A stretch of DNA of 64,000 nt from Burkholderia sp. BCC0506 (lineage in GTDB: Bacteria > Pseudomonadota > Gammaproteobacteria > Burkholderiales > Burkholderiaceae): NCBI RefSeq assembly GCF_902833145.1, contig NZ_CADFEN010000002.1:186001-250000 (forward strand), read 5' to 3'. Every line of letters begins with the position of its first letter. Within the stretch, counting starts at the first letter, position 1. Shown in pieces: positions 19,375 to 57,428 of this stretch. A model generated the notes under the pieces. The model did no database searches and was not told the origin of the DNA. It saw only the letters and a program-made list of their open reading frames with translations. A program made the translations under genes and the position numbers.

Positions 19375-19402
19375 GGCCGGCGGGATGCCGCCGGCCATTT
19401 TT
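19375..19402 (+). terminator. Rho-independent terminator after the CsgG-like gene
   Basis: Perfect 9-base stem GGCCGGCGG / CCGCCGGCC with a 4-base loop (GATG), followed by ATTTTT, 8 bases after the stop codon. Confidence 0.85.
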
Positions 19403-19849
19403 CCCGGGCGTTTCACGCGCTCGGTGCTGCTGTCGCGGCAGTCGCCCCACTTCGTCCTAAGTGGGCAAGCAGCACGGGCTTCTCGTGCAACGCATGCAAT
19501 CCGGCCGTGGACAGGACGTTCGCATGTCTCGTGCGAGCGCTTCCGATGCGCCCGACATCGTCGCGCGCACCGTTTGCTGCCGGTTTGCTGGCAGCGATTC
19601 TCATCCAGCCACCTCTCCCCGACATCGAATCGAACTCGGCCGCGTGCCGGCGCGACGGCATGCGGCCCGCATGACGTCCGCCCATGCACCGCCAAATGAT
19701 CGCCGTTCATCGTCCCGATCGGCTGATGCGCGTTCGAGCCGACCTGTCAGCCGCTACCGACTGCATCGCCCCCACGTCTGGAGCTAGCGCTCTACATCCG
19801 TAGTCGCTCGGCAGCATGCGCTTGCGCCCGAGCAAAGCGAAAATTCGAC

Positions 19850-19895
19850 TTGACGGGGGCCGTGCCATCATTAAAAATTATCCTATCGGATAATA
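19850..19895 (+). promoter_or_regulatory. Promoter with TetR-type operator (site 1)
   Basis: TTGACG (19850-19855), 17-base spacer and TAAAAA (19873-19878) form a sigma70-like promoter. The palindrome ATTATCC-TATC-GGATAAT (19878-19895) starts at the last base of the -10 box. Two further copies with the same placement occur at 23548-23592 and 25968-26011. Transcription would run into the first sulfatase gene 135 bases on. Likely bound by the TetR-type regulator of the island. Confidence 0.75.
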
Positions 19896-20030
19896 AATGC
19901 TGCGGGCCAGCAAATCCGGTTACGGTTCGGATCGAAGCGCGTCGAGCGCGCTCGATCACGCGGGGCGCTCGCGATTTTCCGTGTGGCAGTGGAGACGATT
20001 CATCAATCATACAAATAGGACCACGAATTA

Positions 20031-21662
20031 ATGAAAGCGATCATGGTGATGTACGACAGTCTCAACCGCCGGATGCTGCCTGCGTACGGCTGCGACTGGA
20101 TCGTCGCACCGAACTTTCAGCGGCTGGCGGCGCGGAGCGCGACGTTCGACAACTGCTATGTGGGCAGCATGGCGTGCATTCCGGCGCGTCGAGAGCTGCA
20201 TACCGGGCGCCACAACTTCCTTCATCGGAGCTGGGGGCCGCTCGAACCATTCGACGACTCGATGCCTCAAATGCTCGGCGCGCGCGGTGTCTATACGCAT
20301 CTCGTGAGCGATCATCCGCATTACTGGGAGGATGGCGGCGCCACCTATCACACGCGCTACCGTAGCTGGGAGTTCTTCCGCGGCCAGGAGGGCGACCCCT
20401 GGAAAGGCGAGGTGCGCGAGCCGCACAGCCCGTTTCCGCTGAAGGGCGCATTGAAGGAAAGCGGTGCCCGCCAGGACTGGGTGAATCGGCAATATATGCA
20501 GACCGAGGACCGTCATCCGCAGACATTGACGTTCGATGCAGGCGAGGAGTTCATCCGCAAGAATCACGATGCCGATGCGTGGTTCCTGCAAATCGAGACG
20601 TTCGATCCGCACGAGCCGTTCTTCAGTTATCCGCGCTACAAGGCGTTGTATCCACACGAGTATCGCGGGCCGCATTTCGACTGGCCGCCATACGGGCCGC
20701 GTTGCGAGGACGATACCGACGACGAAGTGGACCATGTTCGCGCCGAATATGCCGCACTCGTATCGATGTGCGACCGCTCGCTCGGCAGGGTGCTCGACTT
20801 GATGGACGAGTTCGATCTGTGGAAGGACACGATGCTGATCGTGTGCACCGATCATGGTTTCATGCTGGGTGAACATGGCTGGTGGGCAAAGACGGTTCAG
20901 CCGTGGTTCAACGAACTGGCGCATACGCCGCTGTTCGTCTGGGATCCCCGAAGTGCGAGACAGGGCGTGCGGCGCCAGTCGCTCGTGCAGACCATCGACC
21001 TGGCGCCCACGATCCTCGACTTCTTCGGCGTGGCGCCGACGCCGGACATGCAGGGCGTCCCGCTTCGCGACACGATCCGGGACGACACGCCGGTTCGCCA
21101 GGCCGCGCTGTTCGGCGTGCATGGAGAGCATGTGAACGTCACCGACGGAAGATACGTCTACATGCGCACGGGGCCCGACCCGGGCAGAAACGTGCCGTTG
21201 CACGAATACACGCTGATGCCCACGCACATGCGGGCGATGTTCGGCGTCGACGAGCTGCAGGAGATCGAACTGGCCGCGCCTTTTTCGTTTACGAAGGGAG
21301 TGCGGACCATGAAGATCGCGGCCAGGCCGCTGGGATATTCGTATCGCTCCGGCACGCTGCTGTTCGATCTCGCGTCGGATCCGCGGCAGGAGCGCCCGAT
21401 CGCGGATGCCGACGTGGAGCGGCGCATGGCGACGCTGTTGCGCGACCTCATGGTAGCGAACGATGCGCCGCCGGAGCAGTACGAGCGCCTGGGGCTGCCT
21501 GCCGAAGGTGAAATCGACCGAAACCATCTGCTCGCGAGTGCGCATTCGGGATACGCGGACACATTGCGGGCGACGTTGGCGAAGCAGGCGCAGGCCATGC
21601 GGGCGTCGGTGGCGACGGCTCGGCTCGCGCAGCATGCGGCCCGATCGACCGTGGCGGGCTGA
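20031..21662 (+). CDS. Sulfatase (CxPAR-type, formylglycine-dependent)
   Basis: 543-residue arylsulfatase-superfamily enzyme without a signal peptide, thus cytosolic. The catalytic cysteine is C49 in MACIPARRELHTGR, a C-x-P-A-R variant of the usual C-x-P-S-R that a formylglycine-generating enzyme converts to the hydrated aldehyde nucleophile. Other metal and substrate residues: D9 at the N-terminus, the region TFDPHEPFF, and TDHGFMLGEHGWWAK with the Asp-His pair. It hydrolyses a sulfate ester; the substrate is not readable, though the island context suggests a sulfated glycoside. First gene of its unit, followed after 50 bases by its presumed activating enzyme, and preceded by promoter/operator site 1. 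Confidence 0.93.
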   Translation: MKAIMVMYDSLNRRMLPAYGCDWIVAPNFQRLAARSATFDNCYVGSMACIPARRELHTGRHNFLHRSWGPLEPFDDSMPQMLGARGVYTHLVSDHPHYWEDGGATYHTRYRSWEFFRGQEGDPWKGEVREPHSPFPLKGALKESGARQDWVNRQYMQTEDRHPQTLTFDAGEEFIRKNHDADAWFLQIETFDPHEPFFSYPRYKALYPHEYRGPHFDWPPYGPRCEDDTDDEVDHVRAEYAALVSMCDRSLGRVLDLMDEFDLWKDTMLIVCTDHGFMLGEHGWWAKTVQPWFNELAHTPLFVWDPRSARQGVRRQSLVQTIDLAPTILDFFGVAPTPDMQGVPLRDTIRDDTPVRQAALFGVHGEHVNVTDGRYVYMRTGPDPGRNVPLHEYTLMPTHMRAMFGVDELQEIELAAPFSFTKGVRTMKIAARPLGYSYRSGTLLFDLASDPRQERPIADADVERRMATLLRDLMVANDAPPEQYERLGLPAEGEIDRNHLLASAHSGYADTLRATLAKQAQAMRASVATARLAQHAARSTVAG

Positions 21663-21712
21663 CGATCGTCGATCATGCGCGAGACGAGGGCGCGGACCGC
21701 GGCTTCCGGCGG

Positions 21713-22735
21713 ATGCCGCGCGCTTTTGGGGAGAGGAAGTTGAGCGAACACGAGGAAGCGACTGTGCGCCGATCGTGCTGCGTGCCGCTGCGCGACGACA
21801 CGTGCGCGCGTCCCGTCGATCCGGTCGGCCGGCCTGAACGTTGCGTACCGGAAGGTCCGCGCGCGCGCGTCGACGACGTCGCGTGGTTCGACGGCGGCGT
21901 GAGCTGGATGGGGACGGACGCACCGGTGATCAAGGCGGACGGCGAGGGGCCGCGCCGCAAGACGCATCTCAAGCCGTTCGGTATCGACCGGTTTGCCGTG
22001 ACGAACCGGCGGTTCGCCGATTTTGTCGCGGCGACGGGTTATCGGACCGATGCCGAGCGGTTCGGCTGGAGCTACGTGTTCGCCGCATTCGTTACCGCCG
22101 ACGCGCGCGACGCGGCATCGGACGGCGATAGCTGGTGGCGTGCCGTTGACGGCGCGTACTGGGCGGCGCCGGAAGGGCCGGCTTCATCGCTTGCCGAGCG
22201 CGACATGCATCCTGTTTGCCACATTTCCTGGCGCGACGCGATGGCCTTTGCAAAATGGTGCGGCGGCCGGTTGCCGACCGAGGCGGAATGGGAGCACGCG
22301 GCCCGCGGCGGCACGACCGAGCGCCGCTATCCGTGGGGCGACGACGAGCCGGCGGAAAGCGCCGTTCTATGCAACATCTGGCAAGGCCGCTTTCCCGACC
22401 TGTACGTCGGCGCAAGCAGGCGTTTCGGAACCGTGCGCGTGGACGCATTTGCGCCGAACCCGGCCGGGCTCCACAATTGCAGCGGCAACGTATGGGAATG
22501 GTGTGCCGATCCATTCCGGGTCCGCTCGTTGTCGAGCGAGGGCAAGGCCCGCGATCGTCAGGCGGTTCGGGACCGCGAGTACACGTTGAAAGGCGGCTCC
22601 TACCTGTGTCATCGCACATCGTGCTTTCGTTACCGGATCGCCGCCCGGACGGGGCGGCCCACCGACACGTCAGCCGGCCACACGGGGTTTCGCGTCGCAT
22701 ACGACCGCGACACGCTCGCCGTGCCGCGCGAGTGA
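21713..22735 (+). CDS. Formylglycine-generating enzyme (sulfatase-activating)
   Basis: 340-residue member of the FGE/SUMF1 family. The core runs from AWFDGGVSWMGTD to the C-terminal TSAGHTGFRVAY and includes the two active-site cysteines that bind copper, C299 and C304 in SYLCHRTSCFRYR, which is the hallmark separating genuine FGE from related non-catalytic family members. It oxidises the sulfatase active-site Cys to formylglycine with O2. The N-terminal 50 residues are unconserved, and a later GTG (near 21764) with a better-spaced GAGGAAG could be the true start. Its place right behind the first sulfatase makes the island independent of any other activating enzyme. Confidence 0.93.
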   Translation: MPRAFGERKLSEHEEATVRRSCCVPLRDDTCARPVDPVGRPERCVPEGPRARVDDVAWFDGGVSWMGTDAPVIKADGEGPRRKTHLKPFGIDRFAVTNRRFADFVAATGYRTDAERFGWSYVFAAFVTADARDAASDGDSWWRAVDGAYWAAPEGPASSLAERDMHPVCHISWRDAMAFAKWCGGRLPTEAEWEHAARGGTTERRYPWGDDEPAESAVLCNIWQGRFPDLYVGASRRFGTVRVDAFAPNPAGLHNCSGNVWEWCADPFRVRSLSSEGKARDRQAVRDREYTLKGGSYLCHRTSCFRYRIAARTGRPTDTSAGHTGFRVAYDRDTLAVPRE

Positions 22736-22802
22736 TCATGCCCGTCCGTGCGCGGCGCGCGATCGGCAGCCCCGGCTCGCCTGCGTTCCGTCGACGACCG
22801 TT

Positions 22803-23417
22803 TCAACGGAAGATGAACGCGACGACGGCATCGCAGTGCGCGTCGATCGAGCGTTCGCTGAGTGCGTCGATACCGTGTGCGTAGCGCATTTCCGCCGTCA
22901 GCAGATAGGGAACCTGTGCGATCGACGTGATCATGTAGAGCAGCATGACCGGGTCGATGCCGGACAGGCCCTTCATTTTCTCGCTGAGGTAGCGGACCAG
23001 CGGCACCGTGCGCGCGTGGCGGCTGCGTACGAAAGTTTCCGCCATCCACTTCAGTCGTTCGGAGTCGCGATTCGCTTCCTGCATCATCAGGCGCGCATGT
23101 TCCGGATGGGCCGCGCAGTAGCGGACGTAATTCCGGACATACCGCTTCGCCTCGTCGATCGAAAATCCGCTTGATGCGGGGTCCGGTGTTTCGATGCCCT
23201 CCATGAAGCGCTCGAAGAGCTGCGTCACGCTCGCCCGCCACAGGTTTTCCTTGTTCCCGAAGTAGTAGCGAATCATCGCGTGATTGACGCCGGCCGCGTC
23301 AGCGATGTCTCGCAGGCTGACCGCATCGAAGCCGCGCGTCGAAAACTGCTCGAGCGCGATAGCCAGGATCTCGGCTCGCGTGAGTTCGCTGCGTTCCTGC
23401 TGCGCTTGTCGGACCAT
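22803..23417 (-). CDS. TetR-family regulator of the sulfatase island
   Basis: 204-residue TetR/AcrR-type repressor. HTH at residues about 14-60 (TRAEILAIALEQFSTRGFDAVSLRDIADAAGVNHAMIRYYFGNKENL), then an all-helical ligand domain of the CecR/YbiH-like kind (EGIETPDPASSGF, HARLMMQEANRDSERLKW). The gene converges on the FGE gene and is divergent from the GH3 gene, with operator site 2 in the 325-base gap. It very likely represses the three island promoters and possibly its own gene, and is released by a sulfated glycoside or breakdown product. Confidence 0.93.
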   Translation of the reverse strand: MVRQAQQERSELTRAEILAIALEQFSTRGFDAVSLRDIADAAGVNHAMIRYYFGNKENLWRASVTQLFERFMEGIETPDPASSGFSIDEAKRYVRNYVRYCAAHPEHARLMMQEANRDSERLKWMAETFVRSRHARTVPLVRYLSEKMKGLSGIDPVMLLYMITSIAQVPYLLTAEMRYAHGIDALSERSIDAHCDAVVAFIFR

Positions 23418-23547
23418 CTATGTCGTTTCCATCCTGGCTCAATTGGGAGAATTCTGCCGTGCTTGCCGGTTAGCCGCAACGACGCAGTGCGCGGCGCCGG
23501 ATGTCGCCCCTAGGGAAAACACCGCCGGTATTTCGCGGTCGTCCATG

Positions 23548-23592
23548 TTGACACGGCGATGTCCAAAATTATAATTATCCAATCGGATAATT
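23548..23592 (+). promoter_or_regulatory. Consensus promoter with TetR-type operator (site 2)
   Basis: Perfect TTGACA (23548-23553) and TATAAT (23570-23575) with a 16-base spacer, reading toward the GH3 gene. The operator AATTATCC-AATC-GGATAATT (23573-23592, 8-base arms) overlaps the -10 box. As a full-consensus promoter it must be strongly repressed when not needed. The site lies 156 bases from the TetR start and may also serve autoregulation. Confidence 0.85.
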
Positions 23593-23742
23593 TCAATCGT
23601 GCGGATGGCGTTTCTGGTCGGCCGTGTCGGCCATCCGGTCGCACGATGGCGACGTTATCCGTCGGAACGAACGTCGCTGACGAAACGGTATTCGAATAAT
23701 TCGGACTGCGATATAAAAGAAGACGATAGAGGTATCGAGAAA

Positions 23743-25905
23743 TTGAACACGAACACTGAACCGGCAATGAGCGGAACCGACACGCAGGACGTGTCGGAAC
23801 GACACGCATCGGACGCGGACGCGCGGGCCCGTGCAACCGAGGCACGGATGACCGACGACGAGCGCTACGGTCTGCTCTACAGCCTGATGGTTCGCGTATT
23901 CGGCAGGGGCGAGCGCGAATCGCGGGTGCCGCACGATCTGCCGGTCATCGCAGGCTACGTGCAAGGCGTGCCGCGGCTCGGCGTACCTGCGCTGAAGCTG
24001 GCCGATGCGAGCCTGGGCATACGGGACACGGAAACCGGCGATGCGGAGGCGACGGCATTTCCGGCAGGGCTCGCGTTGGGCTCGACGTTCGATCCCGAAC
24101 TGGCCCGCCGGGTCGGTCACGCGATCGGCCGCGAGGCGCGCTCGCGCGAGTTCAATGTGGCGCTGGGCGGTGGCATCAACCTGATACGCGACGTTCGCAA
24201 CGGCCGCAATTTCGAATACGTGTCTGAAGATCCGCTGCTGTCCGGCATGGTCGGCGGCGCCGTGGTCGCTGGCATGCAGGCGGAGGGCGTCGTCGCCGTC
24301 CTCAAGCATCTTTCGCTGAATGCGACCGAAACGAACAAGTTTTTCCTGAATGCGATCATCGATCCGGACGCGCACCGCGAGAGCGATCTGCTGGCGTTTC
24401 AGATCGCGATCGAGCAAGGCCGGCCGGGCGCGTTGATGGGCGCCTACAACCTCGTCAACGGCGCGTACGCGTGCGGCAACGGTCACTTGCTGAACGACGT
24501 CGTCAAGGGTGCGATGGGATTCCGCGGCTGGATCATGTCCGACTGGCGGGCGGTCCACGGCTGGGAGTACGCGTTGCACGGGCTCGACCAGCACTCCGGC
24601 GCGCAACTCGACGAGCAGGAATGGTTCAATGAGCCGCTCCGGCGCGCGGTTGAAGCGAACCAGGTGCCGAAGGAGCGGATTCGCGACATGGTCGTGCGGA
24701 TCCTGCGGTCATGCTACGAGGCGGGCATCGACCGGCAAGACACCCCGCCGGAGGTCGACCACGCCGCACATCATGCGCTCGCGCTGCAGGTCGCGCGGCA
24801 AGGCGCCGTGCTGCTCAGGAATCGCGACGGCCTGCTGCCGCTGGCGCCCACTGTGCGGCGCATCGTGTTGATCGGCGGATACGGCCAGGCCGGCGTATTG
24901 TCCGGTTCGGGATCGAGCCAGGTGAAGCCGCGCGGCGGCTATGGCGCGGTGATTCCGCAGCGCACCCATGCGCTGCTGGGGCCGACCGCGATGCACTTGT
25001 ACGGCGAGTCGCTGGTGTCGGCGCTGCGCACGCAGTTCCCGGGCGCGACGATCGAATACGACAGCGGTGCTTTCGTTGCCGAGGCCGCAAGACGCGCGGG
25101 GGCGGCGGACATCGCGATCGTCAATGCGATACGCCACGAAGGCGAGCGGTTCGACTGCCCGGACATGTCGCTACCCTATGGACAGGATGCGCTGATCGAT
25201 GCCGTCGCCGCCGCCAATCGAAATACGGTCGTCGTGCTTCAGACCGGCAATCCGGTGGCGATGCCGTGGCGGGACCGCGTCGCCGCGATCCTGCAGGCGT
25301 GGTATCCGGGCCAGGCAGGCGCCCAGGCGATCGCGGAGATTCTGGCGGGTACGGTCAATCCGTCGGGGCGTTTGCCCGTCACCTTTCCGGTCGATGTCGA
25401 GCAGACACCGCATCCGGTGCTGCCGTGTGCGGACGTCGAACTCGGAACCTTCGTGGACGTGCACTATCGCGAAGGCGCGGAAGTCGGTTACCGGTGGTTC
25501 GCGAAACGCGGGACGACGCCGCTGTTCGGTTTCGGATTCGGGCTCGGCTACAGCACGTTTTCGTACGGCGGCCTGGTCGTCGATGCCGGCGAGTCGATTT
25601 CGGCGCGGTTCACGGTCACGAACACCGGCGAGCGGGACGGGGACGACATCCCGCAGCTGTACTTGACCGGAGTGGACGACGGCGTGCGAATGCGTTTGCT
25701 CGGGTTCCGACGCGTCGCACTCGCGGCAGGCGAATCGACGGATGTGACGATCGAGATCGATCCTCGCTTGCTCGCGCACTTCGACGGCGCGGCCGGCAAC
25801 TGGCACCTTCGGCGCGGACGCTATCGCCTCGTTCTCGCAAGGGCAGCGACGCTACCCGTGATCGAGGTCGACGTCGAGCTTGCCGAGCGCAGGTTCGGCG
25901 CGTGA
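23743..25905 (+). CDS. GH3-family glycoside hydrolase (beta-glucosidase-like)
   Basis: About 720-residue glycoside hydrolase family 3 enzyme without a signal peptide. Domain 1 carries the catalytic nucleophile Asp in GWIMSDWRAVHG (codon at 24541-24543) and VAVLKHLSLN in place of the usual KHF; domain 2 begins near RQGAVLLRNRDGLLPL and holds the likely acid/base Glu in RHEGERFDCPDMSLPYGQ; a fibronectin-like C-terminal domain ends it. A TTG at 23743 with an AGAGGT ribosome site about 10 bases upstream is chosen; the alternative is ATG at 23767. Bases before it are AT-rich leader. It should cleave a terminal sugar from a small imported glycoside in the cytosol. The MFS gene follows after 160 bases with its own promoter. 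Confidence 0.92.
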   Translation: MNTNTEPAMSGTDTQDVSERHASDADARARATEARMTDDERYGLLYSLMVRVFGRGERESRVPHDLPVIAGYVQGVPRLGVPALKLADASLGIRDTETGDAEATAFPAGLALGSTFDPELARRVGHAIGREARSREFNVALGGGINLIRDVRNGRNFEYVSEDPLLSGMVGGAVVAGMQAEGVVAVLKHLSLNATETNKFFLNAIIDPDAHRESDLLAFQIAIEQGRPGALMGAYNLVNGAYACGNGHLLNDVVKGAMGFRGWIMSDWRAVHGWEYALHGLDQHSGAQLDEQEWFNEPLRRAVEANQVPKERIRDMVVRILRSCYEAGIDRQDTPPEVDHAAHHALALQVARQGAVLLRNRDGLLPLAPTVRRIVLIGGYGQAGVLSGSGSSQVKPRGGYGAVIPQRTHALLGPTAMHLYGESLVSALRTQFPGATIEYDSGAFVAEAARRAGAADIAIVNAIRHEGERFDCPDMSLPYGQDALIDAVAAANRNTVVVLQTGNPVAMPWRDRVAAILQAWYPGQAGAQAIAEILAGTVNPSGRLPVTFPVDVEQTPHPVLPCADVELGTFVDVHYREGAEVGYRWFAKRGTTPLFGFGFGLGYSTFSYGGLVVDAGESISARFTVTNTGERDGDDIPQLYLTGVDDGVRMRLLGFRRVALAAGESTDVTIEIDPRLLAHFDGAAGNWHLRRGRYRLVLARAATLPVIEVDVELAERRFGA

Positions 25906-25967
25906 CGGCGGATGGCGAAAGGCACACGCATATCAGTTTTCGAGAGATTCATATCGTTAATTGCGGC

Positions 25968-26011
25968 TTGACGCTTCCTCCGCTTATCCATAAATTCACC
26001 AGTCGGATAAA
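25968..26011 (+). promoter_or_regulatory. Promoter with TetR-type operator (site 3, degenerate)
   Basis: TTGACG (25968-25973), 17-base spacer and TAAATT (25991-25996), with the operator ATTCACC-AGTC-GGATAAA (25994-26011) overlapping the -10 box exactly as at sites 1 and 2. The right arm matches the consensus in 6 of 7 positions, the left in 5 of 7. It precedes the MFS gene by 55 bases. Confidence 0.7.
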
Positions 26012-26065
26012 TATCCGCTGCAACTGGCAGGACGACGCCGGGCGACCGGAGATCAGGGAACAACC

Positions 26066-27313
26066 ATGGACGAACTTTCGCTCGCCGTCGCAAGCCGGCG
26101 CCCGCACAGATACCTGGGTGTCACGCTCGGCGTGGCATTCATCGGCGTATGGCTCGCGATACTGCCGTATCCGATGGTCATCCTGCCGATGCTGGCCGAG
26201 CATATCGCGCCCGCCGAAAAGGCGACCGTGCTCGCCCGAGTGATCGGGATCGGCGCGACGATCGGCCTGTTCGCGCAACCGATATACGGCGTACTGAGCG
26301 ATCACACGCGTTCGCGGTGGGGGATGCGCAAGCCGTGGATTCTAGGCGGCGCGATCGGCGGCGTAGTGGGGATGGCGGTGCTCGTCGACGCGCAATCGCC
26401 GATGCAGCTCGCGCTCGGCTGGGCGATGATGGCGCTCGCGTTCAATGCCACGCTGAGCGGGCTCAATGCGGTGTTGCCGGATCAGGTGCCGGAAAAGCGT
26501 CTCGGCTTCTATTCGTCGATCGTCGGCTTCACGCCGCCGATCGGCATCTTGCTGGGAACGTGGATCGTGAAGCGGCTCGCACCGGATCTCGTCTCCGTGG
26601 CCGTGGTTCAGGGGGCGGTCACGCTGGCGGCGATCGCGTGCTTCGTCACGTTCGCGGCGGATCGGCAACTCGACGCGGCGCGCGTCCGGCCGCTCGACTG
26701 GCGCAAGCTGGCCGGTAGCTTCTGGACCAACCCCGTCAAGCATCCGGACTTCGCGATCGCATGGCTGTCGCGGGCGCTGGTGCTGTTCGGCGTGAGCGCG
26801 CTGCAGCACTACCTGTTGTTCTATCTGCGCGACCGAATCGGTTTGTCGCGGCAGGAGACGCCGCACGCGATGTTCGTCTGCATGCTGACCGCGACGGTGG
26901 TGATGACCGCGAGTGCGCTGCTGTTCGGGCGAATCTCCGATCGCGTGCAGCGCAGAAAGATCTTCGTCATCGTCGCGGGGCTCGGGCTCGCGAGCGGATT
27001 TCCGGTACTGCTCGCGTGCACGACCTTGCCCCAGGTGCTGTACGTCGTCGTGTGGATCGCGTTCGCGCAGGGCGCCTATCTGGCGGTCGACCTCGCATTG
27101 CTGACCGAGGTGCTGCCCGATCGCAATGCAGCCGCGAAGGACATGGGCGTCTTTCATCTTGCAAACGTACTGCCGCAGGTGGTGCTTTCGCTGTGTGCAA
27201 CCTGGCTGGTGTCGCCCGACGGCGCGATTCGCTACGAAAGCCTGTTCGTCGCGGCCGCGTGCACGACCGCGCTCGGCGGCCTCGTCATCACGCTGATCCG
27301 GTCGGTACGCTGA
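26066..27313 (+). CDS. MFS transporter (sugar/glycoside importer type)
   Basis: 415-residue inner-membrane carrier with about 12 hydrophobic segments. The loop between segments 2 and 3 contains GVLSDHTRSRWGMRKPWILGG, a pattern close to the glycoside-pentoside-hexuronide and SLC45-like sugar transporters, and the second half has LFGRISDRVQRRKIFV. It likely brings the sulfated glycoside into the cytosol, since neither sulfatase nor the GH3 enzyme is exported. Start at MDELSLAVASRR; the upstream overlapping frames are not coding. The second sulfatase gene starts 30 bases after its stop, so the two form one unit under operator site 3. Confidence 0.92.
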   Translation: MDELSLAVASRRPHRYLGVTLGVAFIGVWLAILPYPMVILPMLAEHIAPAEKATVLARVIGIGATIGLFAQPIYGVLSDHTRSRWGMRKPWILGGAIGGVVGMAVLVDAQSPMQLALGWAMMALAFNATLSGLNAVLPDQVPEKRLGFYSSIVGFTPPIGILLGTWIVKRLAPDLVSVAVVQGAVTLAAIACFVTFAADRQLDAARVRPLDWRKLAGSFWTNPVKHPDFAIAWLSRALVLFGVSALQHYLLFYLRDRIGLSRQETPHAMFVCMLTATVVMTASALLFGRISDRVQRRKIFVIVAGLGLASGFPVLLACTTLPQVLYVVVWIAFAQGAYLAVDLALLTEVLPDRNAAAKDMGVFHLANVLPQVVLSLCATWLVSPDGAIRYESLFVAAACTTALGGLVITLIRSVR

Positions 27314-27343
27314 TTGACGGCCGTCTTTTTCAACGGATATTTC

Positions 27344-28828
27344 ATGACCACGCAACCCAACTTCATCATCATCGTCGCCGATCAGTTGCGCGCCGACTGT
27401 GTTCACGCGTTCAACCCGTCGACCCCGGTCCGCACGCCGAACCTCGACCGTCTCGCCCGCAACGGTGTCGCGTTCACGCAGGCGTTCGGGCAGCACAGCG
27501 TATGCTCGCCGTCGCGCGTGTCGTTCCTGTCCGGCTGGTATCCGCATGTGGCCGGCCACCGCACGCTCGATTACCTGCTCGGCCCGGAAGAACCCAATTT
27601 CCTGCGGACCTTCAAGGAAAACGGCTATCACGTCGCGATGGCGGGCGGCCGCGGCGACTCGTTCGCGGCCGGCGCGACCGAGCGTTCGATGCATGAACAT
27701 GGCTTCCTGCCGGAGGAGACCCGGCGCAGCGCCGCCGAATTCCTCAGAAGCAAGGCGCAGGGCGACCCCGCCGATCCGATGATTCGCGCGTTCTATCGCG
27801 GGCAACGTTCGGCGGAACAGGCGCAGCTCGAGTACGACGAGGTGGTGATCCGGACCGCGGAACACTGGCTGGCCAATCCGCCGGACAAGCCGTGGGTGCT
27901 GTATGTGCCGTTGTTCGCGCCGCACCCGCCGTTCGAGGCGGAGGAGCCGTGGTTCTCGATGTACGACCGGGCCGCCGTGGCGGACCGCGTGACCGGGCAT
28001 GAAGGGCAGCCGGCGTATGTCGACGCGCTGGCGAAAGCGCACGGCTGGGATCGCCTGACCGATGCGCAGTGGCGTGAATTGCGTGCGGTGTATTACGGCA
28101 TGGTGTCGCGGCTCGACCATCACGTCGGCCGCGTGATGGACGCCGCCGCGCGCGTGACGGATCCCGCGCGGCTCGTGACGACCTTCTTCTCCGACCACGG
28201 CGAATACCTGGGCGACTTCGGTCTGGCCGAAAAATGGCCGTCGGGCGTTCACGATTGCCTGCTCAGGAATCCGCTGATCGTATCGGGCGCGTCGACGTCC
28301 GCCGTCGCCGGAACCGTGTCCGATGCGATGGTGGAACTGATCGACGTGTTTCCCACGCTGCTCGACATTGCCGGCATCGAACCGTCGCACAACCACTACG
28401 GGCGCAGTTTCGCGCCGTGCCTGACGGATGCCGGTGCAACGCATCGGACCTACGCGTTCAGCGAAGGCGGGTTCCTCGTCGGGGAAACGGCGCATTTCGA
28501 AAAATCCGGGTTTCCCTACGACATCAAGGCCACGATGCAGGCCGAGCAGCCGGAGTCGGTCGGCAAGGCGGCCGTCGTCCGCACGCACGAATGGACCTAT
28601 GTGTGGCGCCTGTACGAAAGGCCCGAACTGTACCGACGGACGACCGATCCGAGCGAGACGACCAATCTCGCGGGGCGTGCCGAATACGCTGTAATCGAAG
28701 CGCAACTGCGCGACGTCCTGCTGCGGTGGCAGATCGAAACCGCGGACGTGCTGCCGTCGAAGAAGGGAACCCGATTCCCGGCCGTCGATCTGCCGCGCCC
28801 CGGCGAGTATCGCGAAAGCGAGGGCTGA
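27344..28828 (+). CDS. Sulfatase (CSPSR-type, formylglycine-dependent)
   Basis: 494-residue sulfatase, cytosolic. Metal ligand region IIIVADQLRADC at the N-terminus, catalytic cysteine C54 in HSVCSPSRVSFLSGW (canonical C-x-P-S-R), and TTFFSDHGEYLGDFGLAEKW near residue 285. The HTH-free C-terminal part ends with the usual ELYRRTTDPSETTNLAG segment of this superfamily. It differs strongly from the first sulfatase, so the two probably remove sulfate from different positions or substrates. Overall it resembles choline-sulfatase/iduronate-sulfatase-like enzymes, but the substrate is not assigned. Co-transcribed with the MFS carrier; a GC-rich hairpin follows. Confidence 0.94.
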   Translation: MTTQPNFIIIVADQLRADCVHAFNPSTPVRTPNLDRLARNGVAFTQAFGQHSVCSPSRVSFLSGWYPHVAGHRTLDYLLGPEEPNFLRTFKENGYHVAMAGGRGDSFAAGATERSMHEHGFLPEETRRSAAEFLRSKAQGDPADPMIRAFYRGQRSAEQAQLEYDEVVIRTAEHWLANPPDKPWVLYVPLFAPHPPFEAEEPWFSMYDRAAVADRVTGHEGQPAYVDALAKAHGWDRLTDAQWRELRAVYYGMVSRLDHHVGRVMDAAARVTDPARLVTTFFSDHGEYLGDFGLAEKWPSGVHDCLLRNPLIVSGASTSAVAGTVSDAMVELIDVFPTLLDIAGIEPSHNHYGRSFAPCLTDAGATHRTYAFSEGGFLVGETAHFEKSGFPYDIKATMQAEQPESVGKAAVVRTHEWTYVWRLYERPELYRRTTDPSETTNLAGRAEYAVIEAQLRDVLLRWQIETADVLPSKKGTRFPAVDLPRPGEYRESEG

Positions 28829-28837
28829 CCCGAAAGC

Positions 28838-28871
28838 CGCCGCGAGCGGGCGATTCCATCCGCTCGCGGCG
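28838..28871 (+). terminator. Hairpin between second sulfatase and porin
   Basis: Perfect 12-base stem CGCCGCGAGCGG / CCGCTCGCGGCG with a 10-base loop, 9 bases after the sulfatase stop. There is no T-run, so it is either a Rho-assisted end point or an mRNA-processing structure. A further palindrome TTGAT-A-ATCAA (28905-28915) lies between it and the porin start. Confidence 0.55.
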
Positions 28872-28942
28872 ACCGACGTGCGCCGCGAGCGCATCATGTT
28901 GACCTTGATAATCAATAGAACTAAGGATATGGAGGGGTGGCA

Positions 28943-30001
28943 ATGAGGAGTTTGATCGCTGCTTCATGCTTCGCGGCATTGGCAACGGGTGTGCATGCAC
29001 AGTCGAACGTGACGTTGTTCGGCACGCTCGGCGAAGGCGTACGATGGACCGACGGCGTGAAAGGCGGACATCAAATCGGGTTCGACAACAATGCAATCGC
29101 GGGCAATACGATCGGCCTGAAAGGCACGGAGGATCTGGGTTCGGGTTTGAAGGCGGTATTCCTGCTCCAGAGCGGGTTTTCACTGGGAACCGGTGCGCTG
29201 AAAACGTCGAGCGTGCTGTTCTCGCAGCGCGCATACGTCGGGCTGGAAGGGGGATTCGGTCGCTTGACGCTCGGGCGTCAGTTGAATGCATTCGAGGATG
29301 TCGGCACGCAGCTCGATCCCAACGAGGCGAACGGCCCGTCGCTCGCGACCGTGCCCGGCATCGTCTGGGGCGGCAATTTCTTTACGCTGGACGCGCGGTT
29401 CAACAACACGATCAAGTACGTCGGGCGCGCGGGCGGGTTCACGCTGCGGGCGAGCTATTCGCCGGGCGGTGTTGCCGGGAATACGCGCGCCGGCACCAAT
29501 TTCGCGGCGGCGGCCAGCTATCAGTTCAGCACGTTGCTGCTGGCCGGCGCATACCAGAAGACCTACAACGCGGCCGCCACGCAGTGGGCGCAGAGCACGC
29601 TCGGCGGGCTGACCTGGCAGTTGGGGCCGACGCGGCTCTATCTCGGCTATAGCGGGCTCGAGGTATCCGCGCCGAACGCGAAGAGCGTGGCACGCCGCGA
29701 CCATATTCCGTCGACGGGGCTCGTGTACCGGATCACGCCGACGTTGCAGCTCACGGGCGCCGCCTATTACGACATCGCCAGCAATCTGAAGAACGTCGCC
29801 GGCGCGGACGGACGGAAGATGACCACCTACGCGATGCTCGAATACTTCCTGTCGAAGCGAACGGAGCTCTATGTCGAATTCGACCGGAACGGCTTCTCGG
29901 GCGCCTACAAGAAGGATCCCGCCAACGTGTCCGCATTGAATCTGCGGCCGGACGGTCGCTCGGTGACGGGGGTGTCCGTCGGCGTCATCACGCAGTTCTA
30001 G
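28943..30001 (+). CDS. Gram-negative porin (OmpC-type)
   Basis: 352-residue outer-membrane porin of the betaproteobacterial general-porin family: signal peptide (residues 1-20, ending VHAQS), opening NVTLFGTLGEGVRWTDG, GLKGTEDLGSGLKAVFLLQSGF, SQRAYVGLEGGFGRLTLGRQ (loop-3 region follows) and terminal Phe in SVGVITQF, needed for barrel insertion. GGAGG lies 7 bases before the ATG; a GTG two codons earlier overlaps the ribosome site and is disfavoured. Trimeric 16-stranded barrel. Placed next to the MFS and sulfatase genes, it probably admits the glycoside through the outer membrane. Confidence 0.94.
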   Translation: MRSLIAASCFAALATGVHAQSNVTLFGTLGEGVRWTDGVKGGHQIGFDNNAIAGNTIGLKGTEDLGSGLKAVFLLQSGFSLGTGALKTSSVLFSQRAYVGLEGGFGRLTLGRQLNAFEDVGTQLDPNEANGPSLATVPGIVWGGNFFTLDARFNNTIKYVGRAGGFTLRASYSPGGVAGNTRAGTNFAAAASYQFSTLLLAGAYQKTYNAAATQWAQSTLGGLTWQLGPTRLYLGYSGLEVSAPNAKSVARRDHIPSTGLVYRITPTLQLTGAAYYDIASNLKNVAGADGRKMTTYAMLEYFLSKRTELYVEFDRNGFSGAYKKDPANVSALNLRPDGRSVTGVSVGVITQF

Positions 30002-30080
30002 TGCGGGAGCCGCGCGCAGGTCGGCGATCGTGGACGGATGCGCCGACGACGCGGACGAGCGAAATCAACGGAGAACATAC

Positions 30081-30452
30081 ATGAAAGGATCGAAGAAGAT
30101 CGGGGCGAGCATCGCGGCAGCCGCGCTGCTGGCGACGGGGGCTGCCGTACATGCGCAGGAACAGCCGGCCGCGGCGTCCCGGGTGCAAACCGATGCGGCA
30201 TCGGTACCCGCGCCGGCGGCATCGCAGAGGGCGGCCGACCGGCAATTGCGCAAGCGCGTGGCGCGCGCCCTTGGGCGGGCGAAGGAACTGGATGCGAGCC
30301 GGATGATGGTCTTCGCGCGCAATGGCATCGTGACGTTGTCCGGCGACATGACCGACGCGAACCAGATCTCGATGGCCGTTGCCGTGGCTCAATCGGTATC
30401 GGGCGTGTCGGCGGTGCGAAACCAGCTCCGCATCGGCATGCGCGAGCGATGA
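30081..30452 (+). CDS. BON-domain periplasmic protein
   Basis: 123-residue exported protein with signal peptide (cleavage near AVHAQE, residue 26), Ala-rich linker, and one BON domain (residues 60-120; RQLRKRVARALGRAK, then GIVTLSGDMTDANQISMAVAVAQSVSGVSAVRNQL). BON domains bind phospholipid or envelope components. It follows the porin by 79 bases and may be co-transcribed. It marks the right end of the island. The start is the ATG after a weakly purine-rich stretch. Confidence 0.88.
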   Translation: MKGSKKIGASIAAAALLATGAAVHAQEQPAAASRVQTDAASVPAPAASQRAADRQLRKRVARALGRAKELDASRMMVFARNGIVTLSGDMTDANQISMAVAVAQSVSGVSAVRNQLRIGMRER

Positions 30453-30732
30453 CGAAGCGGGGCGCCGGCGACATTGCATGGAGAGGCGTGGGGTGTCCAA
30501 TGTGGATGGAGAGCGAACCGCCGGCAGGCTGAAACCGCCCCAAACATTCGGTCAAGTTCAAAATCTGGAAAAATACAAATCAGACGTGTACTAAAAAGGT
30601 AATTCAAGACTGATTTTTGCGGAGTCGTTTGGCATAGTCGGGACATCTCCATCCGTTCTGACCGATACGCGACGCGCGATCGGGCCGCGATCCAGCCGCT
30701 TTTTCGTGCCCGCAGCGCTGTCGCGTCATGCC

Positions 30733-39016: not shown

Positions 39017-41950
39017 TTACCTCACGGGGCCGTAGACGAACTTGCCGTCGACCTTCCCGAGGTTCAGGCCGATCGTGTTGACATCGCGCGCGGGGCCGAA
39101 GGTCGAACTCGAGTCGATGCTGCCATAGTTGAGCGCGACCAGGCCGCCCTGGAACGCGGTGCTCTGCCACTGCGGCAGGTTCAGCTTCGAGCCTGAACGG
39201 GATGAACGAATCGTGCCCGAGTTCTGCGCGACGAGGCCGCCGAGATCCGATCCCTCACCGCCGATCGTACCGGTCGACGTCGAATCGGCGATCAGTGCGC
39301 CAGCATCGTTGACGCCGACGAGGCCACCCACCTGCGAACGCTGCGCGGTGACGTTACCCGTTGCCGACGCGTGACGAACGATGGCGTTGCCGCCGCGATT
39401 CGTGCCGATCAGGCCGCCGGCCAGACTGTTGGCGCCGGCGAGCACGTTGACGCTTGCCTTCGCGGTGTCGATCGTGCCGGTGTTCACGCCGACGAGGCCG
39501 CCCGCCTGGCTCTTGCTGCCGGCATTCACCGCACCGGTTGCGCTTGCGTTGCCGATGAAGCCGCCATTGACGCCCGCGAGACCGCCGATCTGGTTGCTCG
39601 TCGTATCGGTCACGATGCTCTTCGATGCGACGTCGTTCAGCTTGCCGTCGGTGTTGCCGGCGAAGCCGCCGATCGATGCCGCGCCGCTTGCGTTCACCTT
39701 GCCCGATGCACTGGCGTGCTCGATCGACGCGCCGTTATGGTTCCAGCCGACGAATCCGCCGACGTGGCTGCTCTTGCCGGCCGTCACGTCGACCGTTGCC
39801 ACCGCGCGGCGGATCGTGCCGCCGTCGTTGTGGCCGACGAGGCCGCCGACGTTCGCGTGGTTGCCTGCCGTGACGCGGCCGCCGGCCGAAACGTCGGAGA
39901 GCGTGCCCGTATTGGTGCCGACGAGGCCGCCCACGCTCTGCACGTTCGCGTACAGGCCCGGATAGCTCGACCCTGCGACCATGACGTCGGCGCTAGCGTG
40001 GCTGTCCGCGATCGAACCGGACATGTTGTAGCCGACCAGCCCGCCCACCGAGAACGTGTTGGCGCTGCCCGCGATCTTGCCGGCGAACCGCGCGCGGTCG
40101 ATCTGGCCGGCGACATTCCGGCCGACGAGCCCCCCGATCATCGTCCATCCCGTCTTGCCGGTATAAGCGACCGCCGTGTTCGTCGCAGAGACGTTCGACA
40201 GGCGGCCGCCGAAGTTGTCGCCGACGAGACCGCCGATGGCCGCGTTGCCGTTCGAGTTGTCACCGGTGACGGCAACGGAGTCGAGCGCCAGGTTCGCGAT
40301 GCGACCGCTGTTCTTCGCGAACAGGCCGACTGCGTATTGGCCCGGATTGGCAACGTTCAGGCGGCTGACGGTGTTGCCGAGGCCGTCGAAATCGCCGGTG
40401 AACGCACTGTTGGCACCGATGCTGCGGAAGTTCGCGCCGCGGCCGTCGATCGCGTTGCCGACCACGTAGCGGCCGTTCAGGTCGTTGTCCACGCGACGCA
40501 GATCGTCGACGGTGTGCAGGACCTTATAGTCGTGGCCATTCGAGCGGAACGATGCGTTGTCGCCCGACAGCGTGACGGCCTTGCCGGACGCGAGCGTATG
40601 GCCGTTCCTCGCGTTCAGCCCGAGGTGTGCCGCGCGACCGGTGAGGCTGACCGCATCGTTGACGTGGATCGTATCGGCGGCATCGACACGCAGGCTCGCG
40701 TGTTCGCCGGTGGCGGACACGGTGCGTTGCAGGTCGACATTGCCTTGCTGCGAAGCCAGCGTCAGTGCGTTGTCGCTGTTCCACGCGAGCGGGCCGTCGA
40801 CGCTCAGGTCGCCTTGCGTATTGGTCAGTGCGACGTTGGTGGTGCCGAGGTTGCGCGACAGCGTGTCCGCCGCGATCGAGCGATCACCGCCGTTCGTGCC
40901 GTTCACGCCCGCGTTGGCCGCTTCGATCGACCACGTGCCGGCGGTGTTGCCTGCACGCGTGTCGACGTTCGTATCGGCGGCGACGTTCACGCGCTGGCCG
41001 CGCGTGACGACCGAACCGGTCTGCGCGCCACTGGCGTCGAGCGTGCCACCGACGTTGACGGTGTCGCCGTCGAGCGAGATCTTGCCGCCGCGGCTCGCAA
41101 GCCCCTTCGCCTCGATCGTGCCGCTGTTGTTGACCACGGCGTTGAGCAGGTTGCCCGCCGCGCGTGCGGTCATCAGCACTTCGCCGCCGTCGGCCTTGAG
41201 CATCCCGCCGTTGGTCGCTTGCGCATCGACCGCACCGCCTTCGACCTGAAGACTGAGCAAATCGTTGCCGTCGAAGTTGACCTTGAACGCATTGCCTGCG
41301 CCGAGCGCGACGCGGCCCATCTTCGCCTGAATCACGCCGTTGTTCGACACGCGCGCGCCGAGCAGCGCGACGCTGCCGCCGTCGGCCGCGGTGATCTTGC
41401 CGTCGTTGACGATCGATGCGGCGGAGTGACCGGCGAAGCGATAGTTGCCGGCGAGGAAGTCGGCGTCGGAAATGGCTTGAGTCGACGCGACGAGACCACC
41501 GACGTTGACCTGCGCGCCGGAGCCGAACACCATGCCGTTCGGGTTGACGAGGAAGACCTTGCCGTTGGCGTCGATGCTGCCGTGGATCTGGCTGCCGTTG
41601 TTGCCGATGACGCGGTTCAGCGCGATGGACTGGCTGCCGGGTTGATGGAACGACACGCGTTCGCCGCCTGCGACGTCGAACGACTGCCAGTTGGTGACGA
41701 GTTTGTCGGTGTGCTGGTTGACGGACATCGACTTGCCGTCGACGTCGCGCAGGATATCGGCCTTGCCGGCGGTGATGGCTTCGCCGGTGGGCAGTGCGAA
41801 GGCGGGCAGCGCGGCGAGGCCGAGCAGGGAGACGGCAGCGGCGGCGAGGCGCTTGCCGCCGGCGGACTTGCCGTGCCGGCGCGCGGTTTCCCCGACAGCG
41901 CTCCAGCAACCCTGGGCCTGGTTCCATACGAGTGCGTAGGTCTTGTTCAT
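39017..41950 (-). CDS. FHA-like TpsA exoprotein with GLUG repeats (copy 1)
   Basis: 977-residue two-partner-secretion exoprotein. Residues 1-28 form an extended signal peptide region (MNKTYALVWNQAQGCWSAVG), followed by a hydrophobic core ending near ALPAFALP; residues about 53-310 are the TPS/hemagglutination-activity domain with NPNGM at 136-140; the rest is beta-helix, and from about residue 540 a run of GLUG-type repeats (GGLVGxNxGTI pattern). The C-terminus is short without a CDI-like toxin part. It is the third and last exoprotein gene downstream of the shared TpsB gene. Likely an adhesin. The last part, after the repeats, differs from the other two copies. Confidence 0.93.
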   Translation of the reverse strand: MNKTYALVWNQAQGCWSAVGETARRHGKSAGGKRLAAAAVSLLGLAALPAFALPTGEAITAGKADILRDVDGKSMSVNQHTDKLVTNWQSFDVAGGERVSFHQPGSQSIALNRVIGNNGSQIHGSIDANGKVFLVNPNGMVFGSGAQVNVGGLVASTQAISDADFLAGNYRFAGHSAASIVNDGKITAADGGSVALLGARVSNNGVIQAKMGRVALGAGNAFKVNFDGNDLLSLQVEGGAVDAQATNGGMLKADGGEVLMTARAAGNLLNAVVNNSGTIEAKGLASRGGKISLDGDTVNVGGTLDASGAQTGSVVTRGQRVNVAADTNVDTRAGNTAGTWSIEAANAGVNGTNGGDRSIAADTLSRNLGTTNVALTNTQGDLSVDGPLAWNSDNALTLASQQGNVDLQRTVSATGEHASLRVDAADTIHVNDAVSLTGRAAHLGLNARNGHTLASGKAVTLSGDNASFRSNGHDYKVLHTVDDLRRVDNDLNGRYVVGNAIDGRGANFRSIGANSAFTGDFDGLGNTVSRLNVANPGQYAVGLFAKNSGRIANLALDSVAVTGDNSNGNAAIGGLVGDNFGGRLSNVSATNTAVAYTGKTGWTMIGGLVGRNVAGQIDRARFAGKIAGSANTFSVGGLVGYNMSGSIADSHASADVMVAGSSYPGLYANVQSVGGLVGTNTGTLSDVSAGGRVTAGNHANVGGLVGHNDGGTIRRAVATVDVTAGKSSHVGGFVGWNHNGASIEHASASGKVNASGAASIGGFAGNTDGKLNDVASKSIVTDTTSNQIGGLAGVNGGFIGNASATGAVNAGSKSQAGGLVGVNTGTIDTAKASVNVLAGANSLAGGLIGTNRGGNAIVRHASATGNVTAQRSQVGGLVGVNDAGALIADSTSTGTIGGEGSDLGGLVAQNSGTIRSSRSGSKLNLPQWQSTAFQGGLVALNYGSIDSSSTFGPARDVNTIGLNLGKVDGKFVYGPVR
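41011..41950. repeat. Triplicated TpsA 5' segment, copy 1
   Basis: About 940 bases coding for signal and TPS domain, near-identical to 44611-45550 and 48238-49177. Direct repeats, all in the same orientation, spaced about 3.6 kb; a substrate for homologous recombination. Confidence 0.85.
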
Positions 41951-42018
41951 ATCTTCCTTCTCGCTGAAGAAGTAGCAGCCGGCAGAGCGGATTGACCGGT
42001 CGACCGGCGATGGGGCCA

Positions 42019-42034
42019 GCGGCCGGACGGCCGC
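42019..42034 (-). other. Small GC hairpin between TpsA copies 2 and 1
   Basis: GCGGCC-GGAC-GGCCGC lies in the 153-base gap between copies 2 and 1. A stronger hairpin sits in the matching gap between copies 3 and 2. It may end or process part of the transcripts. Confidence 0.4.
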
Positions 42035-42103
42035 CGGCCGGGATTCGCCACGGCCTCCGACCATGCCGGTGCGGACATGGCCGGAGGCACGAGCGCTGGA
42101 GCG

Positions 42104-53393: not shown

Positions 53394-53428
53394 ACGACGC
53401 GTCGACGCACGCGGCTTGGAAAACACGA

Positions 53429-54661: not shown

Positions 54662-55149
54662 TGAACCGGATCCTGGTGGTGTGTACCGGCAACGTCTGCC
54701 GTAGCCCGGCCGCGCAGGCGCTGTTCTCGCGCGCGTTGCCCGGCCGCACGGTCGAGTCGGCCGGCATCGCGGCGATCGGCGGAATGCCGATCGATCCGCT
54801 GATGAACGAATTGCTGATCGCGCGCGGCCTTGCGCCGTCGCCGCACCGGGCCCGCCGGCTCGACGACCGCGTCTGCCGGTGGGCCGACCTGATTCTCGTG
54901 ATGGAGGCCGCGCAGCGCCATCTGATCGAGCGGACCTACCCGATCACGCGCGGCCGCGTGTATCGCCTCACCGAGCGTTGCCGGACCGACGTTCCCGATC
55001 CGTACCGCCGAAGCCGCCATGTGTACGACTACGCGATGACGCTGATCGAGCATGGCGTCGTCGATTGGGCCGAGCGGATCGCCTGCCTCGAATCGAACCG
55101 GCCGCGACGTCGGGATGCCGGCGCAGACGCGCCGGAATACTTGAAGTGA
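54661..55149 (+). CDS. Low-molecular-weight protein tyrosine phosphatase (Wzb/BceD type)
   Basis: 162-residue phosphatase with the P-loop CTGNVCRS (C8 and R14 of the C-x5-R motif) and the general acid D113 in VPDPYRRS. In polysaccharide loci it removes phosphate from the Tyr-rich tail of the autokinase, cycling it during polymer assembly. The upstream ATG shares bases with the stop of the export gene (ATGATG), so the start could be one codon earlier. The kinase gene follows 7 bases on. Confidence 0.95.
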   Translation: MNRILVVCTGNVCRSPAAQALFSRALPGRTVESAGIAAIGGMPIDPLMNELLIARGLAPSPHRARRLDDRVCRWADLILVMEAAQRHLIERTYPITRGRVYRLTERCRTDVPDPYRRSRHVYDYAMTLIEHGVVDWAERIACLESNRPRRRDAGADAPEYLK

Positions 55150-55156
55150 GCCTCAG

Positions 55157-57409: not shown

Positions 57410-57428
57410 TCCGCCGACGGAGAATCCG

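What the first reader, a model, noticed from the sequence alone, without database searches (positions are those of the whole stretch)
19850..30452. Self-contained sulfated-glycoside catabolic island under one TetR regulator
Two cytosolic sulfatases of different active-site type, a genuine formylglycine-generating enzyme, a cytosolic GH3 glycosidase, an MFS importer, a porin and a TetR regulator lie together. All catalytic proteins lack signal peptides, so the sulfated compound must be imported whole and broken down inside. Known sulfatase loci of Bacteroidetes work in the periplasm with a SusCD system; an MFS/GH3/dual-sulfatase pathway with its own activator in a betaproteobacterium is not one I recognise. 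Substrates could be plant or soil-derived sulfated glycosides.
Basis: partly seen in the sequence, partly recalled or inferred. Interest (0 to 1): 0.78.

Follow-up and report, generated by a model that had tools for sequence, protein, structure and literature searches.

The report
Mobile sulfated-glycoside import-and-breakdown gene island
A Burkholderia carries a movable block of genes, apparently kept off by one repressor, that looks built to bring a sulfated sugar compound into the cell and take it apart there; the same key enzyme sits beside different sugar importers in many unrelated bacteria, and its natural substrate is unknown.

Summary
The gene list is right. Window 19397-30531 (11.1 kb) encodes two S1 sulfatases, an FGE, a TetR regulator, a GH3 glycosidase, an MFS transporter, a porin and a BON-domain protein. 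One detail is wrong: both sulfatases are Cys-type (CIPAR, CSPSR). The 'one TetR' idea gains direct support: an 18-bp palindrome, ATTATCC-N4-GGATAAT, lies exactly at both promoters. Its exact form occurs in 7 of 65 Burkholderia genomes, all carriers, only at cassette promoters. It overlaps the presumed -10, so TetR is more likely a repressor than an activator. Six of 6 relatives compared lack the island at this site. Eight of 65 Burkholderia carry the first sulfatase (SulfA); in 7 of 8 the genes are linked, in differing orders, with conflicting gene trees. SulfA also occurs in Actinomycetota, Chloroflexota, Bacillota, rhizobia and about 10% of E. coli genomes, beside interchangeable importers (MFS, Opp ABC, sugar ABC, PTS). 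Best reading: a horizontally moving, repressor-controlled pathway that imports a sulfated glycoside or sugar and degrades it in the cytosol. The logic has precedents, so this is a new variant of a known kind. The substrate is unknown and no structure could be computed.

The parts
19397..30531 (.). whole island; absent from the same site in 6 of 6 relatives compared, 5 of which hold a homologous ~1.3-kb segment there (the sixth 0.4 kb)
   Evidence: blastn of window against L128-L133; gap segments
19850..19855 (+). TTGACG, presumed -35 of the sulfA promoter, 27 bp before the operator
   Evidence: TTGAC 24-28 bp upstream of all 12 operators listed there
19877..19894 (.). presumed TetR operator O1, ATTATCC-N4-GGATAAT, before sulfA
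20031..21662 (+). SulfA: S1 sulfatase without signal peptide, CIPAR formylglycine motif
   Evidence: Pfam PF00884; alignment A1; N-terminus
21713..22735 (+). FGE: formylglycine-generating enzyme
   Evidence: Pfam PF03781; alignment with solved FGE
22803..23417 (-). TetR-family regulator, presumed repressor
   Evidence: Pfam PF00440; divergent from GH3 over operator O2
23574..23591 (.). presumed TetR operator O2 between tetR and GH3
23599..25905 (+). GH3 glycosidase (likely start 23767); nucleophile Asp in MSDW, acid/base candidate Glu in HEGERFD
   Evidence: Pfam PF00933/PF01915; alignment with 4i3g and 7ms2; catalytic roles recalled
26066..27313 (+). MFS transporter, presumed importer
   Evidence: Pfam PF07690; weak GPH/MFS_2 matches
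27314..28828 (+). SulfB: second S1 sulfatase, CSPSR motif (likely start 27344)
   Evidence: Pfam PF00884; alignment A2; nearest solved relatives are the arylsulfatase/phosphonate monoester hydrolase group
28937..30001 (+). outer-membrane porin with signal-like N-terminus
   Evidence: Pfam PF13609; N-terminus
30081..30452 (+). small BON-domain protein with signal-like N-terminus; one also follows the porin in B. paludis (L045)
   Evidence: Pfam PF04972; N-terminus

Best explanation
It is a horizontally moving catabolic island for a sulfated glycoside or sugar. Without inducer, TetR sits on two palindromes with identical arms that overlap or abut the -10 regions of the sulfA-FGE unit and the GH3-MFS-sulfB-porin unit, and represses both (operator sites shown; binding and repression inferred). 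The compound passes the porin and is imported intact by the MFS protein (inferred). In the cytosol FGE converts the CxPxR cysteine of SulfA and SulfB to formylglycine (inferred from family). The two sulfatases remove sulfate ester(s), and GH3 cleaves the glycosidic bond, giving sugar, aglycone and sulfate (inferred). The imported compound or a product relieves TetR (inferred).
For: Gene content and families. Shared operator: exact at both promoters; 4 matches in the window at up to 3 mismatches against 0.35 expected, 0 of 100 shuffles with as many; exact form in 7 of 65 Burkholderia genomes, all among the 8 SulfA carriers, only at cassette promoters, reversed-pattern control 0 of 65; hypergeometric 1.1e-8; 12 sites in 8 genomes, each with TTGAC 24-28 bp upstream, one site changed symmetrically on both arms. 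Sites follow the unit structure: one before GH3 in all 8, a further one where sulfA or FGE heads its own unit. Linkage in 7 of 8 carriers despite different orders and conflicting gene trees. In 76 of 80 SulfA loci the codon aligned with residue 1 of the window protein, eight residues before the metal-site Asp9, is a start codon (69 ATG, 5 GTG, 2 TTG). Interchangeable importers: MFS types, Opp ABC, sugar ABC, PTS. GH3 within about 10 kb in 28 of 74 non-Burkholderia loci at 200 bits or more; background in 20 of these genomes 119 GH3 matches in 140.4 Mb, against 10 of those 20 loci.
Against: No substrate, expression or binding data exist here. GH3 was not found in 44 of 74 non-Burkholderia SulfA neighbourhoods (E 1e-12; 12 of the 74 are cut by contig ends) nor beside the E. 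coli copy, which also has no FGE within 9 kb, so SulfA's own substrate may be a sulfated sugar rather than a glycoside. An importer of the MFS or Opp type was not found in 18 of 74. The MFS family matches are weak and include drug-efflux models. B. aenigmatica has SulfA apart from the rest, lacking its first 24 residues, without an operator nearby and without a close FGE. The structure queue was full on all 11 tries, so active-site geometry is untested.
Confidence: 0.62

Rival explanations
1. Sulfur scavenging: the cell frees sulfate from organic sulfates for sulfur nutrition, and the sugar part is incidental.
For: Sulfatases often serve sulfur supply in soil bacteria (recalled). In 18 of 74 non-Burkholderia SulfA loci there is an importer but neither FGE nor GH3/GH1 within reach.
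Against: In Burkholderia a dedicated TetR with operators at the unit promoters, a glycosidase and a porin in the same run, and sugar-type importers elsewhere.
Confidence: 0.15
2. Detoxification or resistance: the cassette inactivates a sulfated or glycosylated antimicrobial, with the MFS protein as an efflux pump under a TetR repressor.
For: TetR-controlled MFS pumps are common (recalled); the best solved relative of GH3 is 4i3g, which I recall as the macrolide-activating glucosidase DesR of Streptomyces; multidrug MFS models match weakly.
Against: Relatives have binding-protein ABC or PTS importers beside SulfA in place of the MFS; a porin is included.
Confidence: 0.1
3. Two pathways parked together: sulfA-FGE and tetR-GH3-MFS-sulfB-porin act on different compounds and only share the regulator.
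For: The SulfA tree conflicts with the TetR and GH3 trees; B. aenigmatica keeps the second half without a linked SulfA; E. coli has SulfA without any glycosidase beside it.
Against: The same halves stand together in differing orders in 7 of 8 carriers, and GH3 accompanies SulfA far above background in other phyla.
Confidence: 0.13

Closest known systems
Bifidobacterium breve UCC2003 sulfatase clusters for N-acetylglucosamine-6-sulfate (Egan et al. 2016, seen only as cited in one passage of PMC7326374)
   Same: Sulfated sugar used by an intracellular sulfatase encoded in a dedicated gene cluster
   Different: From recall, that cluster uses an anaerobic radical-SAM maturase and a ROK-type regulator; here an FGE, a TetR, a second sulfatase, a GH3 and a porin
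Streptobacillus moniliformis GAG cluster (passages of PMC5430744)
   Same: Sulfated disaccharide imported whole by an ABC transporter, then sulfatase and glycoside hydrolase placed in the cytoplasm; ABC and PTS importers stand in for each other between species
   Different: Uses polysaccharide lyases and a GH88 unsaturated glucuronyl hydrolase; here GH3, no lyase among the island genes, FGE in the cluster
Bacteroidetes sulfatase loci with SusC/SusD (recalled)
   Same: Sulfatases and glycosidases grouped under one regulator
   Different: Periplasmic enzymes and SusCD uptake; here no SusC/SusD and no exported catalytic protein
Choline sulfatase BetC (NCBIfam TIGR03417)
   Same: S1 sulfatase (cytosolic, recalled)
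   Different: SulfA 111.7 and SulfB 149.7 bits against a cut-off of 433.45
Arylsulfatase / phosphonate monoester hydrolase group (4upi, 4upl, 2w8s, 2vqr)
   Same: Nearest solved relatives of SulfB
   Different: PehA model 164.7 bits against a cut-off of 900; SulfB specificity open

Membership tests
S1 formylglycine sulfatase (SulfA, SulfB) | Sulfatase domain with C/S-x-P-x-R motif and conserved metal and catalytic residues | tested here: met
   Pfam PF00884 above cut-off; C49 P51 R53, D274 H275, K287 invariant in 44 SulfA, D9 in at least 90%; C54 P56 R58, D284 H285, K297 invariant in 8 SulfB; residue roles recalled
S1 formylglycine sulfatase (SulfA, SulfB) | Formylglycine formed and sulfate ester cleaved | not testable with these tools
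   needs protein
   CIPAR and CSPSR, both Cys
Formylglycine-generating enzyme | FGE domain with the two copper-site cysteines (role recalled) | tested here: met
   PF03781 220.9 bits; both cysteines aligned with 6s07
GH3 glycosidase | GH3 N- and C-domains, catalytic Asp | tested here: met
   PF00933, PF01915, Fn3-like; SDW aspartate aligned with 4i3g and 7ms2
GH3 glycosidase | acid/base Glu | tested here: inconclusive
   a Glu of HEGERFD lies opposite a Glu in both 4i3g and 7ms2, but which Glu is catalytic was not checked
TetR repressor with operator | Palindromic operator at own and target promoters | tested here: met
   (sequence only; binding not tested)
Bacteroidetes polysaccharide utilization locus | SusC/SusD pair, exported enzymes | tested here: not met
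   no such domain among the island proteins; no signal-like N-terminus on the enzymes
Choline sulfatase BetC | TIGR03417 above cut-off | tested here: not met
   111.7 and 149.7 against 433.45
Bifidobacterium-type ats cluster | importer + cytosolic sulfatase + own maturase + own regulator (make-up recalled) | tested here: inconclusive
   same set of roles but, from recall, a different maturase and regulator; homology of parts not compared

The most novel reading that the evidence does not exclude
SulfA defines an uncharacterised, cross-phylum sulfatase family made for one chemical class of imported sulfated sugar or glycoside. It is passed between lineages as a cassette in which the importer (MFS, Opp ABC, sugar ABC, ascorbate-type or glucose-type PTS), the regulator (TetR, PadR, LysR) and the second sulfatase are interchangeable. 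In Burkholderia it is a mobile repressor-controlled island, and in about 10% of E. coli genomes a PTS-sulfatase gene group.
Probability: 0.45. Interest if true: 0.68.

Novelty: new variant of a known kind. Interest (0 to 1): 0.52.

Why it matters
Sulfated organic compounds are abundant (recalled), and 60 of 72 numbered subfamilies of formylglycine sulfatases had no known substrate in the 2016 classification (S1_13 to S1_72; passage of PMC5066984). A strongly conserved sulfatase without export signal, tied to importers in soil actinobacteria, rhizobia, Burkholderia and part of E. coli, gives a tractable route to a new substrate. The Burkholderia operator predicts which genes should respond, and an E. 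coli laboratory host could be used for the chemistry.

Tried and rejected
Rejected: one Ser-type and one Cys-type sulfatase (both Cys). Rejected as less likely: TetR as activator (operator at the -10), not excluded by experiment. Rejected: a choline-sulfate locus. Rejected: my early note that the B. aenigmatica SulfB carries an internal stop; one search flagged one TAG in the matched range, but the aligned residues 10-501 hold none, so the stop must lie at the end of the match.

Considered and left open: glucosinolates, GlcNAc-6-sulfate, sulfated phenolic glycosides, ascorbate sulfate (the E. coli PTS resembles ascorbate PTS). Nothing here separates them. Besides the ten cluster representatives, nineteen neighbours in relatives were scanned in Pfam for substrate hints (the twentieth protein being the window's own BON protein): a GH39 and a sugar-type MFS in Treponema and sugar binding proteins in Paenibacillus and Cohnella stood out; the rest gave no common theme.

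Failed: structure prediction of SulfA, answered 'busy' 11 times, so no fold search was run and SulfB was never submitted. The 20 genomes for the GH3 background were picked by hand after the neighbourhood table had been seen; the share with GH3 was 10 of 20 there and 28 of 62 in full-length non-Burkholderia loci at E 1e-12. The 119 GH3 matches include split and sub-cut-off matches. No control neighbourhoods of another sulfatase were collected. The profiles used to label neighbours were built from these same loci, so weak labels are soft; the counts at 200 bits are safer. Literature: searches listed no paper on this cassette by title or abstract; the library holds open-licence papers only and the listed papers were not read through.
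Full report
WHAT IS THERE. Both sulfatases are Cys-type, CIPAR and CSPSR, so the claim of two active-site types is wrong. The FGE aligns over residues 57-331 with solved formylglycine-generating enzymes and keeps both cysteines of the copper site (the role of those cysteines is recalled). The N-termini of the four enzymes lack a signal-like hydrophobic core while porin and BON protein have one. The FGE is not the only FGE-domain protein of this genome: three other matches exist, two of them in one frame on contig 12 and one beside another sulfatase on contig 2 at 434801-437648.

ONE REGULON. A perfect palindrome ATTATCC-N4-GGATAAT stands at 19877-19894 before sulfA and at 23574-23591 between tetR and GH3. 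At up to three mismatches the window holds 4 matches against 0.35 expected, and no shuffle of 100 reached 4. Over 65 Burkholderia genomes the exact form occurs in 7, every time at a cassette promoter; the reversed pattern occurs in none. All 7 are among the 8 SulfA carriers, hypergeometric 1.1e-8. The eighth carrier, G002, has two near forms, one of them changed symmetrically on both arms. I count 12 sites in 8 genomes: one before GH3 in each, one before sulfA in the three genomes where sulfA heads the cassette, and one before FGE in G002. In the four genomes where sulfA follows the porin there is no site before sulfA at two or fewer mismatches. In B. aenigmatica none was found near its separate SulfA at up to three. 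Each of the 12 sites has TTGAC 24-28 bp upstream; with a 17-bp spacer assumed, the palindrome overlaps or abuts the -10. This suits a repressor. None of 74 non-Burkholderia SulfA loci has the palindrome at two or fewer mismatches.

A MOVING ISLAND. Left and right flanks of the window lie 0.4-1.3 kb apart in 6 of 6 relatives compared. The left match reaches window 19396-19400 in four of them, one at 92% identity, but stops at 17999 and 17767 in the other two (G045, G047), so there the difference is a little larger. The right match begins at 30532-30548 in all six. Five hold a homologous 1.3-kb segment at the site, without similarity to the island (the sixth, 0.4 kb, was not compared); in the one inspected it encodes a lipoprotein-like ORF. 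So the island took the place of that segment in this lineage, or the relatives lost it. G001, G002 and G047 carry their own cassette genes elsewhere. The order differs: A-FGE-tetR-GH3-MFS-B-porin in the window; FGE-tetR-GH3-MFS-B-porin-A in G002; tetR-GH3-MFS-B-porin-A-FGE in three genomes; A-MFS'-FGE-tetR-GH3-porin-another sulfatase in two, where a different MFS and a different sulfatase stand in. The trees conflict: SulfA joins the window with LIG30 and Bp9143 (support 100), whereas TetR and GH3 put LIG30, Bp9143 and G002 together, apart from the window (support 100 each); FGE, MFS, SulfB and porin do not place the window firmly. No integrase or transposase is among the annotated island genes (no separate search was made), and its G+C (64.7%) is only slightly below the flanks (66.6 and 66.4%). 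In the family, SulfA was found at E 1e-100 in 8 of 398 genomes, all in one of 25 genera.

THE WIDER FAMILY. The one genome-collection scan found 271 relatives and kept the best 80: 6 Burkholderia and 74 others. The other 43 SulfA proteins of alignment A1 are 57-80% identical to the window's. In 76 of 80 loci the codon aligned with the window's residue 1 is a start codon, eight residues before Asp9; in the other four the match begins at residue 2, 3, 4 or 25. Longer upstream frames exist in some loci, so the start is likely, not proved. Within about 10 kb of the 74 non-Burkholderia SulfA genes, profiles made from these same loci give at 200 bits or more MFS in 44, PadR regulators in 36, FGE in 32 and GH3 in 28 (12 of the 74 are cut short by contig ends). 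At E 1e-12, 18 of 74 have neither MFS nor Opp importer and 44 of 74 no GH3. The GH3 background in 20 of these genomes is 119 matches in 140.4 Mb, while 10 of those 20 loci have one (P about 3e-13 if independent; they are related and were chosen by hand). A translated search of plasmid records gave 56 with a relative at E 1e-100, 48 of them under 60% identity. Six of those records were opened with annotation: GH3-MFS-TetR-FGE-PadR-MFS-GH1-SulfA in Streptomyces anulatus; FGE, two sulfatases and an MFS in another Streptomyces; sugar ABC transporter, SulfA and FGE in Rhizobium leguminosarum; Opp-type ABC transporter, three sulfatases and GH3 in Neorhizobium petrolearium; a glucose-family PTS with an anaerobic maturase nearby in Serratia entomophila; an ascorbate-type PTS in E. 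coli. A seventh, from Neorhizobium galegae, carries no annotation; a weak FGE match lies before its SulfA. The E. coli three-gene segment occurs in 552 of 5426 genomes, all chromosomal. In a tree with two other sulfatases the SulfA set, E. coli and Serratia included, stands together on a very long branch, poorly resolved inside. Binding-protein ABC and PTS systems work inward (established knowledge), which is the main argument that the MFS protein imports.

HOW IT LIKELY WORKS. Porin, MFS import, FGE maturation, desulfation, GH3 cleavage, with TetR released by the compound or a product. Shown: gene content, motifs, operator sites, linkage, differing location. Inferred: every catalytic and transport step, and repression. 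Precedents for importing a sulfated sugar and desulfating it in the cytosol are Bifidobacterium breve (one passage of PMC7326374) and Streptobacillus moniliformis, where ABC and PTS importers also stand in for each other between species (passages of PMC5430744). That paper argues that sugars sulfated at C-6 do not suit a PTS; if this applies to E. coli and Serratia, the sulfate of their SulfA substrate is not at C-6. Carrier LIG30 comes from wet tropical forest soil (start of the abstract of PMC4064042 in the listing), which fits plant matter but proves nothing.

VERDICT. It is not foreign in kind: it is a new variant of import-then-desulfate pathways. What is new here is the operator-defined moving island and the recognition that its first sulfatase belongs to a wide cross-phylum family whose substrate I could not identify.

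Noticed in passing
L152 7303-10482 (E. coli record CP088669.1, between rlmC and artJ): An ascorbate-type PTS IIC, a IIB and a SulfA relative (58% identity) stand in a row; the segment is present in 552 of 5426 E. coli genomes; function unknown.
   Followed up: partly
G000 contig 2, 434801-437648 (outside the window): Another sulfatase with an FGE-domain gene close behind it in the same genome.
   Followed up: no
L129 5165-6262 (minus strand): Lipoprotein-like ORF with repeated segments in a relative, in the 1.3-kb segment that occupies the island's site in 5 of 6 relatives.
   Followed up: partly
window 39020-42064 (minus strand): Two-partner secretion exoprotein with ESPR, TPS domain and GLUG repeats; next to it a 2382-codon open frame on the plus strand without Pfam match at 1e-10, perhaps antisense.
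   Followed up: no
window 52082-58604: Polysaccharide export, Wzc-type kinase and UDP-GlcNAc 2-epimerase genes: probably a capsule or exopolysaccharide cluster.
   Followed up: no
window 25994-26011: Degenerate form of the palindrome (3 mismatches) in the gap between GH3 and MFS; may be chance.
   Followed up: no
L044 9202-10773 (B. aenigmatica): SulfA copy without the first 24 residues, including the metal-site aspartate, on another contig than the rest of the cassette.
   Followed up: partly
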